Source: Phaffia rhodozyma
Taxonomy: Eukaryota; Basidiomycota; Tremellomycetes; Cystofilobasidiales; Mrakiaceae
NCBI GenBank assembly: GCA_014706385.1
Contig: JACGZH010000004.1
Coordinates: 682,001 to 746,000 of the forward strand
Length of the DNA stretch: 64,000 nt
Reading direction: 5' to 3'
The notes under the pieces: model-generated
Seen by the model: the letters and a program-made list of their open reading frames with translations, nothing else
Database searches by the model: none
What the model was told of the DNA's origin: nothing
Shown: positions 4,653 through 27,857 of the stretch, piece by piece
How the letters are laid out: each line of letters opens with the position of its first letter
Numbering within the stretch: position 1 is the first letter of the stretch
Translations under genes and position numbers: made by a program

Positions 4653-5595
4653 TCATTCCGACTCTTCATCTTCTTCATCCTCACCTTCGCCTTCTTCACT
4701 AGAGGCCATCGCTCGAGCGGCCTCTGTCTGCTTCTTGGACTTTTTCCCACCCCGGCCTGTCTTCTGGTCTGGCCCGCCGCTGCTTTCTACTGGGTCCGGC
4801 ACGGTCTGATTCAAGAATCGTATTCGACGCAAGGGTATGTCAGAACCAGGAAGTGAATGAAGAAAGTAACGACCGGGAAGGAGAGAGATGTGTTGAGAAG
4901 GAGATGCAGAGACGAACGGAAGCAGTATCGACCAGGAAATCAAACATGGGCGAGTTCATGATTGTCCGTTTTCTAGCAGGCCCAAACCCCCAGGATCGAT
5001 GAAAACAGAAGGAGAATGAGGACCCAAGTGTAAGGAAAAGGAAAAGGTGTTCAGTCAGAGAAGAATGCCGACAAAACAGGAAAGATGAAAGAAGAGCAAG
5101 GAGAGGAGGTTGAAAAGGACAGACAGATGGTAGGGCATGAGTTTCTTTCCTTTCGTCTTGGAAGCTTCTTCCGACGCGGCAGAGACAAGGGAAGCCATGA
5201 AAAGTTCGAGCGCCTTTGCTGTTGTTCGAAAGGAGAGAGCCCGGGCATTAAAAAAATAAGTAAGAACGATAGACATACGTGCATACGACGAGAGCATAGA
5301 AGGCCTTACACACTAGAACAGGCGTGGCCATAGCAACCTTGCCGACGTCCTCATCTGTCTGCATGATCTTTTTTATCCTGGCCTGAAGGAGAAAGAGACG
5401 AGCCGAGGTCAGCAAGACAAGCTCGAGGCGTAGGTGAGTACAAAGGAGAAGAGGAGAGAACCAACCACCGGAAACTAGAGGAAAGAAGAGAAAGAAAGAT
5501 AAAGAAGAACGACGCGTCAGCAAGGAATGATCCGAAGGAAGGAACATGCACTGGTCAAGAACGGGCCAGACCTTTGTCTGCTTTGTTTTCTTCAT
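4653..5595 (-). CDS. BUR6: Negative cofactor 2 alpha (DRAP1/Bur6), histone-fold transcription regulator
   Basis: Six exons on the minus strand: 5595-5572, 5474-5469, 5382-5310, 5218-5125, 4972-4918 and 4805-4653, about 134 residues. The histone-fold core ARIKKIMQTDEDVGKVA, ATPVLVSKALELFMASLV and KLMPYHLKRTIMNSP, then MFDFLVD, matches NC2-alpha (human DRAP1, yeast Bur6) closely. With NC2-beta it binds TBP on promoter DNA and controls pre-initiation complex assembly in the nucleus. The C-terminus is Gly/Lys-rich and ends in an acidic run of Glu/Asp, as in relatives. The second exon is only 6 nt and adds Phe-Pro, restoring the conserved FP before ARIKKIM. The third-exon donor GTAAGG and a split Ser codon restore VSKALELF exactly. 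The gene is divergent from the lysine-rich gene at 6306, with about 710 nt between them. Confidence 0.92.
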
Positions 5596-24430: not shown

Positions 24431-27400
24431 ATGTCTGGCGATTTGATTGCAAAGTTGACCGCCCTCGAGATCACTCCCAAGGTCATCAAGCACGAGCCGG
24501 TCGTAGGAGCTAAAGCCTGGAAGGCTGCTTTGGAGGGAAAGGACGGAGTTCCTGCTGCCTGTCAGTTTTTCTTAGTTCTCTTGTTTCTGTCCATCGTGAG
24601 AAATAGAGGACACCTCGATATCGAAGATTGCTCCGTGGCTGGGGTTGAGGATGCGGCATGGTGGTGATTTGGAGGGAACCGTCAGTTTGGTCCGAGTTGG
24701 CGTGTACGATCTAGGAATGATATTGACTCGACTCTCTCCTCTCTCTCCCGTCTTTGGATACACACAGTCGAGTGCACCAAGACTTTGGTCTTCAAGCCCA
24801 AGGTTTGCTCTTTCAAAACACGCTCAACAGCTCCCATCATTCTATCTATCACCTGAGTGTCTCAATTAGATTGCCTTGAAGGCTGACTCTTCATGTTCTT
24901 GATCATTCTCAAAGACTGCCAAGACCGCTACTCCCGTTCCTGTTGTCATTATCGCTTCTGATACTACCGAAACTCCTACCGGGCCCTTGGGTAAGAAGCT
25001 CAATGTCAAGGAGATGAGGCTCGCTAACGAGGATCTCATCAAAGAGTTCTTTGCCGTCGGTAAAGATGATGGTGAGTGCCCCGCATTCGGCTCTAGTTCA
25101 CCTACTTGACTTCTCCTCGAGTTGTTTAATGTACTAACGAGTCATTTTCCTTCGTTGCATTCGACTTTCTATCAGTCTCTCCTCTCCACCTCACTTCCGC
25201 TATCCTTCCTAAGGTCCAAACTATCCTTTCTGCTTCCCTCGCCTCGTCCTCCGACCTCTTTGCTGTCCATGCCTCTACTTCTGCCGAGACTATCTTCCTC
25301 TCCGGAGTCGAGCTCGCCAAATTCCTTCGATCTGTCGGTAAGGAAATCCAGGAGGTCGATTTCGAGAGCATGAAGGTTGACGCCCCAGCCGCGCTCGTTT
25401 CGTCGGCTCCTAGGCCTGAGTAAGCTTCCTTTCCTATACTATCAGCCAAACCGCGCCAAATCAGGAGAACTCACCGCCTCTGGGCTTCGGGGTGTTTCAG
25501 AAACAGCACGAACAGGACGGCTGCTCTTGACAAGAAGAGAAGGGATGATGCCAAGATTGAGGGCGCCGACGAGATGTCCATTGGAATTGATAAGGACCTT
25601 GATTTCCCCGAGTGGTACAAACGGGTAAGTACCTCTTTCTTGATCTATCTGATCCGTATGCTTGGGTTTATGCTTATCAGACGCGCTATTTGTCATCATC
25701 TTATGCTTGCCCTTCGTGGAATCAATTCAAATATCTCTAGGTTTTGGTCAAGGGAGAGATGATCGAGTGGGTATACAGATTTTCCGCTGTTGAATGACTC
25801 AAGATACTAACGCGCCTGCGCGCTCGCAATCTTCTCTATTTGCTTAGTTATTATGATATCTCTGGATGCTACATCCTCCGACCCCAGTCGTACTCCATTT
25901 GGGAGTCTATTCAGGAGTTCTTCAACAAGGAGATCAAGAAGCTTGGAGTGCAGAACTCGTACTTCCCCATGTTCGTGTCCAACTCCCGATTGGAGAAGGA
26001 GAAGGACCACATCGAGGGTTTCGCCCCCGAGGTCGCTTGGGTTACCAAGGCGTAAGCTTCACACTCTTTTCTCTCTCCCTTTTCTAAAAGACTGCTCTAG
26101 TTCGTTAGTTTCACGCTGATCTGGATTTTCCGTTGGAATCTAATAGCGGTCAGTCTGATTTGGAGGAGCCTATCGCTATTCGACCTACGTCTGAGACGGT
26201 CATGTACCCTTGTACGCTTGCACTTTCTCTCCTTTGACTTTTGTTGAGACACTCATATGAATAAATTCTCTTTTCTGCGATGGTTGATAGACTACGCCAA
26301 GTGGATCCAGAGTCACCGAGATCTTCCTCTTCGACTGAACCAGTGGAACTCTGTCGTCCGATGGGAGTTCAAGAATCCCCGTCCGTGCTCTTATTCGTAC
26401 CTATTCAAGTTGCCATGCTGCCATTTTGTCATGTTATACTAAATCTGTGCATCTTCTTTCTTGTTATGCGTCTTGCTCTGTCTTTTCCTCTAGAGCCTTT
26501 CCTTCGAACTCGAGAGTTCCTCTGGCAGGAGGGTCACACCGCCTTCCTCCGACGAGAAGAAGCTGAGAAGGAGGTTCACCAGATCCTCGATCTCTACCGA
26601 CGAGTGTATGAGGAGCTCCTCGCCGTCCCTATGGTTAAGGGTGTTAAATCCGAGAACGAGAAGTTTGCCGGTGGTCTGTTCACCACTACCATCGAAGGTT
26701 TCATTCCTACCACCGGTCGAGGAATCCAGGCCGCCACTTCCCACTGTCTCGGTCAAAACTTCTCCAAGATGTTCGACATCACTGTTGAGGATCCTGAGAA
26801 CGAGCGAGAGAAGATTCACGTGTGGCAGAACTCTTGGGGTTTGAGTACCCGATCGATCGGAGTGATGGTGATGACTCACGGAGATAACCAGGGAATGATT
26901 ACCCCTCCCAGGGTTGCGCCCATCCAGGTGGTAGTCATCCCTGTCGGTTTGACCACCAAGACGTCGGATGAGATGAGGAAGAAGGTGTTTGATACTGTTG
27001 AGAACCTCGTTACTGATCTCCAGGCGAAGGATGTCAGGATCAGGTCGGATGTCAGGGAGGGTTACACCCCTGGCTTCAAGTGGGCTCACTGGGAGATGAT
27101 GGTTCGTTTTCGTTCGTTGCTTAAAATCAAGGAAGCGGACGGTCTGACCCATTGTTTTTTTTTTCTTGGTCTGCTTGTTGATTGTCAAACTTGATTTGTA
27201 GGGAGTTCCTCTTCGACTCGAGGTCGGACCCAAGGATGTTGAGAACGGAAAGACGTTGACTGTCCGACGAGACACTAAAGTTAAGGCTCCTATCGATCTC
27301 GCTGATATCACCACCACCATTCCCGCTCTCCTTGAGCAGATTCAGGCCGATATGTTTGCCAGAGCCCAGGCAGAGTTTGCCAAGCGACGAGTTGTCGTTG

Positions 27401-27857
27401 AGGAGTGGGATAAGCTTGTCCCGACGTTGGACGCCAAGTGTGTGGCTGTGTTGCCTTGGTGTGAGGAGCCTGCTTGTGAGGATGAGATCAAGGACAGGAG
27501 TGCAGCCATGTTCGTAAACTTTCGCTGCTTTTCCTTTCTCTTGCGCGCGCGTGTCACAATCGTTGACTATCGATTTCAAAACGCCTTTTCATTACAGTGC
27601 CCAGGCTGCTTCCAAGGAGGCTGTCGATGATAGAGTTCCTTCTTCTGGAGCTAAGACTTTGGCTATTCCGTTCGACCAGTCTGTCTACCCATCGATCGAG
27701 GGAAAGACGTGCCCCGGTTGTGGAAAGGCTTCCAAGAGGTGGACCATGTTCGGACGAAGTCAGTCTTCTTTACACTCTCTCGATCGGCGAGTTACAAAAA
27801 ACAAGACAACTGATCGCTGCGTTCGCCACACATTTATTTATCCACCTAGGTTACTAA
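24431..27857 (+). CDS. Cytosolic prolyl-tRNA synthetase with N-terminal editing-like domain
   Basis: The start at 24431 gives [20 protein letters not shown]. The N-terminal part (to about 25420) is a YbaK/ProX-like domain with [12 protein letters not shown] and [13 protein letters not shown], as appended to fungal and protist ProRS. After a Lys-rich linker the class II core follows: [36 protein letters not shown] (motif 1 region), [15 protein letters not shown] with [16 protein letters not shown] (motif 2), [20 protein letters not shown] and [19 protein letters not shown] (motif 3). Then the anticodon-binding domain ([12 protein letters not shown]) and the C-terminal zinc-binding-like domain with [18 protein letters not shown] end at the terminal Tyr, stop 27855-27857. 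The last exon is only 8 nt including the stop; the codons AGT TAC TAA are completed across the intron at 27849/27850. It attaches proline to tRNA-Pro. Codons are strongly biased (CGA, TCC, GAG), fitting high expression. Confidence 0.94.

What the first reader, a model, noticed from the sequence alone, without database searches (positions are those of the whole stretch)
5469..5474. A 6-nt microexon (Phe-Pro) in NC2-alpha
Reading the minus strand, MKKTKQTK (exon 1) joined directly to ARIKKIM would miss the conserved Phe-Pro that precedes this helix in NC2-alpha. Inside the intervening DNA there is CTAG|TTTCCG|GTGG: an acceptor, six bases coding Phe-Pro, and a donor, all in phase 0. It splits one 180-nt intron into introns of about 97 and 78 nt. 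Six-base exons are among the smallest known, and it would be invisible to standard gene finders.
Basis: partly seen in the sequence, partly recalled or inferred. Interest (0 to 1): 0.75.

Follow-up and report, generated by a model that had tools for sequence, protein, structure and literature searches.

The report
Nine-base microexon in fungal NC2-alpha
A fungal gene for the transcription regulator NC2-alpha very probably splices in a tiny exon of nine bases (not six, as first read) that supplies three conserved amino acids, Phe-Pro-Val; a deposited protein already includes them, so it is a small member of a known class.

Summary
The microexon is very probably real, but it is 9 nt, not 6. It lies at window 5474-5466 (minus strand), TTTCCG|GTG = Phe-Pro-Val. 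The 9-nt model gives a 135-aa protein identical end to end to a deposited Phaffia rhodozyma NC2-alpha. Of 277 GT-AG combinations of one or two introns tried, only this one gives that N-terminus. A spliced alignment with 118 homologues, the deposited protein left out, finds the same exon. Of 120 listed homologues (Phaffia included), 119 carry FPV or FPI before this helix. The 9-nt donor fits the local GTNNG pattern; the 6-nt donor does not.

A eukaryotic contig inside a bacterial MAG (L007) shares Phaffia introns 2, 3 and 4 in position and phase but lacks intron 1. So the microexon probably arose when an intron was added 9 nt upstream of an old one. The claim that it escapes annotation fails: the deposited protein contains FPV. 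No RNA reads could be examined here. Mildly interesting, of a known kind.

The parts
5572..5595 (-). NC2-alpha exon 1, 24 nt, MKKTKQTK, first in-frame ATG
   Evidence: no Met upstream in the open frame 5931-5595
5475..5571 (-). intron 1, 97 nt, GTCTGG...CTAG, CTGAC with its A 42 nt before the end, 24 of 25 pyrimidines before the AG
5466..5474 (-). microexon 2, 9 nt, TTTCCGGTG = Phe-Pro-Val, phase 0-0
   Evidence: deposited protein identical; homology splicing; unique GT-AG solution among 277 tried
5383..5465 (-). intron 2, 83 nt, GTTGGT...TCAG, CTGAC with its A 26 nt before the end; position and phase shared with L007
5310..5382 (-). exon 3, 73 nt, ARIKKIMQTDEDVGKVAMATPVLV(S)
5125..5218 (-). 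exon 4, 94 nt
4918..4972 (-). exon 5, 55 nt
4653..4805 (-). exon 6 with stop codon, acidic C-terminus
   Evidence: residues as in P0001

Best explanation
This is the NC2-alpha (DRAP1/Bur6) gene of Phaffia rhodozyma or a near-identical strain, with six coding exons. Exon 2 is a 9-nt microexon, normally included, coding Phe-Pro-Val, the conserved entry to the first histone-fold helix. Inferred mechanism: each flanking intron (97 and 83 nt) has its own donor, CTGAC branch-like site and AG, and is removed by intron definition, probably one after the other because U1 and U2AF/U2 could hardly sit on 9 nt together. Inferred origin: an old phase-0 intron stood after FP[V/L]; a second intron, gained 9 nt upstream in the lineage leading to Phaffia, cut FPV off from exon 1.
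For: The 9-nt model equals deposited P0001 over 135 of 135 residues. A spliced alignment on 118 homologues without Phaffia and Mrakia, asking only for GT...AG, finds the same five introns at penalties of 6 to 16 bits; with the interval shuffled (penalty 10), 0 of 150 reach the real score and 0 of 150 yield two introns. One of 277 GT-AG combinations gives MKKTKQTKFPVARIKKIM. FPV or FPI precedes the helix in 119 of 120 listed homologues; human NC2-alpha 1jfi_A has FPP. PF00808 gives 58.0 bits for 9 nt, 51.1 for 6 nt and 51.0 for skipping. Donor +5 is G in 13 of 14 other local introns; donor score is 1.99 (9 nt) against -3.25 (6 nt). L007: KKKYQTRFPL, phase-0 intron, ARIKKIM; its next two exons are 73 and 94 nt as in Phaffia. 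Sharma et al. 2015 (PMC4393869, abstract and passages) built their Phaffia gene models with RNA-seq, transcript evidence weighted high.
Against: No RNA read was examined here. That P0001 comes from the annotation of Sharma et al., and that its FPV came from transcripts rather than from a predictor, are inferences. At an intron penalty of 20 bits the spliced alignment drops exon 1 and the microexon. The shuffle control is not far off: best shuffle 89.9 bits, mean 79.1, against 91.5 for the real interval. The intron 1 donor GTCTGG is middling (0.05; 17% of all 6,922 GT in the window, both strands, score as well). Intron gain (rather than loss in the L007 lineage) rests on one distant contig, whose exon limits I set by hand.
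Confidence: 0.92

Rival explanations
1. A 6-nt exon, Phe-Pro only, with donor GTGGTT.
For: TTTCCG is flanked by AG and GT; frame kept.
Against: Deletes the residue that is V or I in 119 of 120 listed homologues and P in human; differs from the deposited protein; donor has T at +5 and scores -3.25, reached or passed by 69% of all GT in the window; PF00808 drops by about 7 bits. Any FPV exon offers this decoy, since a Val codon begins with GT.
Confidence: 0.02
2. No microexon: exon 1 runs through the open frame to ...FFPL (ends 5476) and splices by donor GTTTCC to ARIKKIM, giving FPL and a 29-residue longer N-terminus.
For: The whole 189-nt interval is open in frame; FPL is what L007 has; PF00808 56.9 bits, only about 1 bit below the 9-nt model; an in-frame FP[VIPL]|GT arises in 1,541 of 100,000 shuffles.
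Against: Donor score -3.4 with C at +5; Leu scores -1.7 bits at this column against 3.6 for Val; the added N-terminus finds no counterpart in the homologue consensus, whereas MKKTKQTK lines up with MKKKYKTK; not the deposited protein.
Confidence: 0.02
3. The exon is skipped: exon 1 joins ARIKKIM directly, in frame, giving a 132-aa protein without FPV, as the main form.
For: 9 nt and phase 0 make skipping frame-neutral.
Against: It contradicts the deposited protein and 119 of 120 listed homologues. As a minor form it is untested (see novel case).
Confidence: 0.01

Closest known systems
Small microexons of plants, 1-15 nt (PMC8831610, start of abstract in a listing and passages)
   Same: Tiny internal exon with conserved coding content, often missed in annotation
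   Different: Plant ones are mapped by RNA-seq and conserved across species; here no reads were seen, and conservation of the microexon itself beyond Phaffia is not shown
Microexons of 2-10 aa in Phanerochaete chrysosporium P450 genes (PMC1184071, passages)
   Same: Basidiomycete, short introns, exon as small as 6 bp
   Different: Different gene family; here a general transcription regulator
Trichoderma virens Xlr2 microexon switch (PMC11121469, start of abstract and passages)
   Same: Fungal microexon in a transcription regulator
   Different: Xlr2 inclusion depends on glucose; no regulation is shown here
NC2-alpha / DRAP1 / Bur6 histone-fold subunit
   Same: Similarity, PF00808, name of the deposited Phaffia protein
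   Different: Nothing unusual noticed in the protein; the exon cut is what is unusual

Membership tests
Microexon (internal exon of at most about 30 nt) | Length at most 30 nt and internal | tested here: met
   9 nt between two introns in the supported model
Microexon (internal exon of at most about 30 nt) | Flanked by functional splice sites | tested here: inconclusive
   GTCTGG/CTAG and GTTGGT/TCAG with CTGAC in both introns; donor scores 0.05 and 1.99; function not shown
Microexon (internal exon of at most about 30 nt) | Present in mRNA | not testable with these tools
   No reads held; only the deposited protein implies it
Regulated (switch-like) microexon | Inclusion varies with condition | not testable with these tools
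   No RNA data; 9 nt in phase 0 would allow in-frame skipping
NC2-alpha (DRAP1/Bur6) | Histone fold PF00808 and best matches to NC2-alpha | tested here: met
   58.0 bits against cut-off 21.4; best PDB match NC2 alpha 1jfi_A; best match deposited as NC2 alpha
NC2-alpha (DRAP1/Bur6) | Pairs with NC2-beta and binds TBP on DNA | not tested
   Recalled role; no structure or partner was examined

The most novel reading that the evidence does not exclude
Besides the full form, Phaffia makes an in-frame NC2-alpha without FPV by skipping the 9-nt exon, and uses the balance of the two forms to tune TBP repression. The microexon arose when an intron landed 9 nt before an ancient one.
Probability: 0.06. 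Interest if true: 0.55.

Novelty: new member of a known kind. Interest (0 to 1): 0.3.

Why it matters
It would give a test case in a tractable yeast for splicing a 9-nt exon by intron definition, with a plausible birth history (an intron added next to an ancient intron). It also shows a trap in finding microexons: when the last codon is Val, its GT mimics a donor and shortens the exon by one residue, and only homologues or reads settle it.

Tried and rejected
Rejected: the 6-nt exon, the FPL retained-frame model and skipping as the main form. RNA structure: the pre-mRNA from exon 1 to exon 3 folds no better than shuffles (z 1.57, 193 of 200 shuffles at least as stable), so no structure is invoked. 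Led nowhere: an NC2-alpha search of viral contigs (88 pattern matches, none a relative); PF00808 in the own genome, 6 matches on other contigs and none at this gene, probably because its exons are short (loci L001-L006 were not read). Wanted and not got: the deposited Phaffia prolyl-tRNA synthetase, which was not among the 120 listed of 164 hits at E <= 1e-250, so the introns of that gene come from my own spliced alignment on 50 of the 119 listed homologues P0168-P0286 (the first 50 of 690-730 aa). The Mrakia frigida partial model P0046 starts with Ser-Arg-Ile-Lys-Lys at exactly the exon 3 boundary; I first took it as a sign of a missed microexon in Mrakia, but it only shows the intron 2 boundary, since a short undivided exon 1 could be missed as well.

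Not examined: the NC2-alpha hits beyond the 120 listed of 424, and the N-termini of most of the new hits P0121-P0166 of the second search (3 of 46 read, P0123, P0130 and P0135, each with FPV); the others include short plant models that may be truncated. No structure was predicted.

Full report
What is there. On the minus strand the window carries an NC2-alpha gene at 5595-4653. The interval between MKKTKQTK (ends 5572) and ARIKKIM (starts 5382) is 189 nt. Three readings keep the frame: a 6-nt exon (FP, 134 aa), a 9-nt exon (FPV, 135 aa) and no exon (132 aa); a fourth lets exon 1 run on in the open frame to FFPL (164 aa).

Which organism. The best database hit is a deposited protein, 'Class 2 transcription repressor NC2, alpha subunit (DRAP1) [Phaffia rhodozyma]', 135 aa, 100% identical over 100% of the 9-nt model (letters read). 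The window's genome has 19.77 Mb in 15 contigs; the published Phaffia (Xanthophyllomyces dendrorhous) genome has 19.50 Mb. I take the window as Phaffia rhodozyma or a near-identical strain.

Which reading is right. Of 277 combinations of one or two GT-AG introns (each at least 20 nt) between 5595 and 5362, one yields MKKTKQTKFPVARIKKIM: introns 5571-5475 and 5465-5383 with 9 nt between.

Independent of that deposit: a spliced alignment with a profile of 118 homologues (P0002-P0120, Mrakia P0046 left out, Phaffia P0001 not in it) and no donor model beyond GT and AG gives |FPV| and all five introns at intron penalties of 6, 8, 10, 12, 14 and 16 bits; at 20 bits exon 1 and the microexon are dropped. 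With the middle of the interval shuffled (first 40 profile columns, penalty 10), 0 of 150 reach the real score and 0 of 150 use two introns; the real score is 91.5 bits, the shuffles average 79.1 and the best reaches 89.9. Of the 120 listed of 424 homologues, Phaffia included, 118 carry FPV or FPI by script (115 FPV, 3 FPI), one more, P0038, has FPV on reading, and one, Mrakia, lacks it because its partial model starts at SRIKK. Human NC2-alpha has FPP (1jfi_A). PF00808 scores are 58.0 (9 nt), 51.1 (6 nt), 51.0 (skip) and 56.9 (FPL) bits, so Pfam alone does not separate the 9-nt model from the FPL rival.

Splice sites. In the prolyl-tRNA synthetase gene of the same window (24431-27760, plus strand) the same method gives 11 introns, 10 of them with G at donor +5; the exception is the last one (GTAAAC), whose place I think uncertain. 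With NC2-alpha introns 3 to 5 it is 13 of 14. A small matrix from these 14 scores the donors GTTGGT (9 nt) 1.99, GTCTGG (exon 1) 0.05, GTGGTT (6 nt) -3.25 and GTTTCC (FPL) -3.4; the 14 themselves, each left out in turn, range from -2.02 to 3.36. Of all 6,922 GT in the window (both strands) 8.9%, 17.2%, 69.0% and 70.8% score as high. Both introns beside the microexon hold a CTGAC, its A 42 and 26 nt before the intron end; CTNAC in the zone searched occurs in 10 of 16 introns examined (these two included), against 4.6 on average in 500 shuffles, of which the best also reached 10.

A valine codon begins with GT. Any exon ending in Phe-Pro-Val therefore offers a false donor after Phe-Pro. The sequence alone hardly tells the two apart; homologues and the local donor pattern do.

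Where the microexon comes from. A search of prokaryote genomes gave one relative among 275 pattern matches, L007, in a contig of a MAG titled Akkermansiaceae bacterium (CAIRGO010000098.1). The gene has introns and is clearly eukaryotic, so I take the contig as contamination (inference). With exon limits set by hand it reads KKKYQTRFPL, then a 182-nt phase-0 intron, then a 73-nt exon ARIKKIM..., a 233-nt phase-1 intron, a 94-nt exon and a 57-nt phase-2 intron. In Phaffia the exons after FPV are also 73 and 94 nt with the same phases. So introns 2, 3 and 4 are shared and old. Intron 1 is missing in L007, where FPL is still joined to KKKYQTR; the contig begins there, so nothing further upstream can be seen. 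The simplest history is that intron 1 was added 9 nt upstream of an ancient intron. With a single outside contig, loss in the L007 lineage is not excluded. Against the NC2-alpha proteins fetched here, L007 matches Umbelopsis, Mortierella-like and Lichtheimia proteins about equally (56-60% identity over 83-87 residues in the 12 rows shown), so its lineage is open. Mrakia frigida, of the same family as Phaffia (Mrakiaceae), has a partial model that starts at the boundary before S/A-RIKK, which fits intron 2 and leaves intron 1 open.

How it works. Shown: the sequence anatomy and the coding result. Inferred: each short intron is recognised across the intron, and the two are removed in turn because nine bases hardly leave room for both sets of factors; the plant microexon paper makes a like argument (PMC8831610, passages). 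A review, of which I saw passages only, states that efficiency under intron definition depends on intron length and not on exon length (PMC8624252). The FPV residues lie at the entry to the first histone-fold helix; this placing, and that H2A has like residues there, is recalled and comes from no structure examined here.

What is known. The microexon is implied by the deposited protein, so the gene model is public. The Phaffia genome paper used GeneMark-ES, Augustus with RNA-seq hints, PASA and EVM with high weight for transcripts (PMC4393869, abstract and passages); that P0001 is a product of that annotation is likely but was not checked. I found no paper that names a microexon in this species: 'micro-exon' with 'Xanthophyllomyces' 0 papers, 'microexon' with 'dendrorhous' 0 papers; 'microexon' with 'fungi' gave 61 papers, of which 20 were listed. 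These searches cover only the held open-access library. Microexons as such, in fungi too, are known.

Verdict. A 9-nt microexon by strong indirect evidence, misread by one codon; ordinary in kind, with a neat probable origin. RNA reads were out of reach and remain the deciding test.

Noticed in passing
window 24431-27760 +: Prolyl-tRNA synthetase gene with 11 introns by spliced alignment.
   Followed up: yes
window 25741-25766 +: A 26-nt exon in the prolyl-tRNA synthetase gene, between introns of 116 and 81 nt: a second short exon in this window.
   Followed up: no
L007:1-2287: A contig of a MAG titled Akkermansiaceae bacterium (CAIRGO010000098.1) holds an intron-bearing eukaryotic NC2-alpha gene: apparent contamination of the bacterial MAG.
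   Followed up: partly
L007:316-384: A 30-base stretch (aattcaccgaccgcgcatttggaactgggg) stands twice, at 316-345 and 355-384, inside the intron that follows exon 3.
   Followed up: no
window 5931-5248 -: The frame of exon 1 is open through both introns beside the microexon, so retention of both would bring no stop before 5248.
   Followed up: partly
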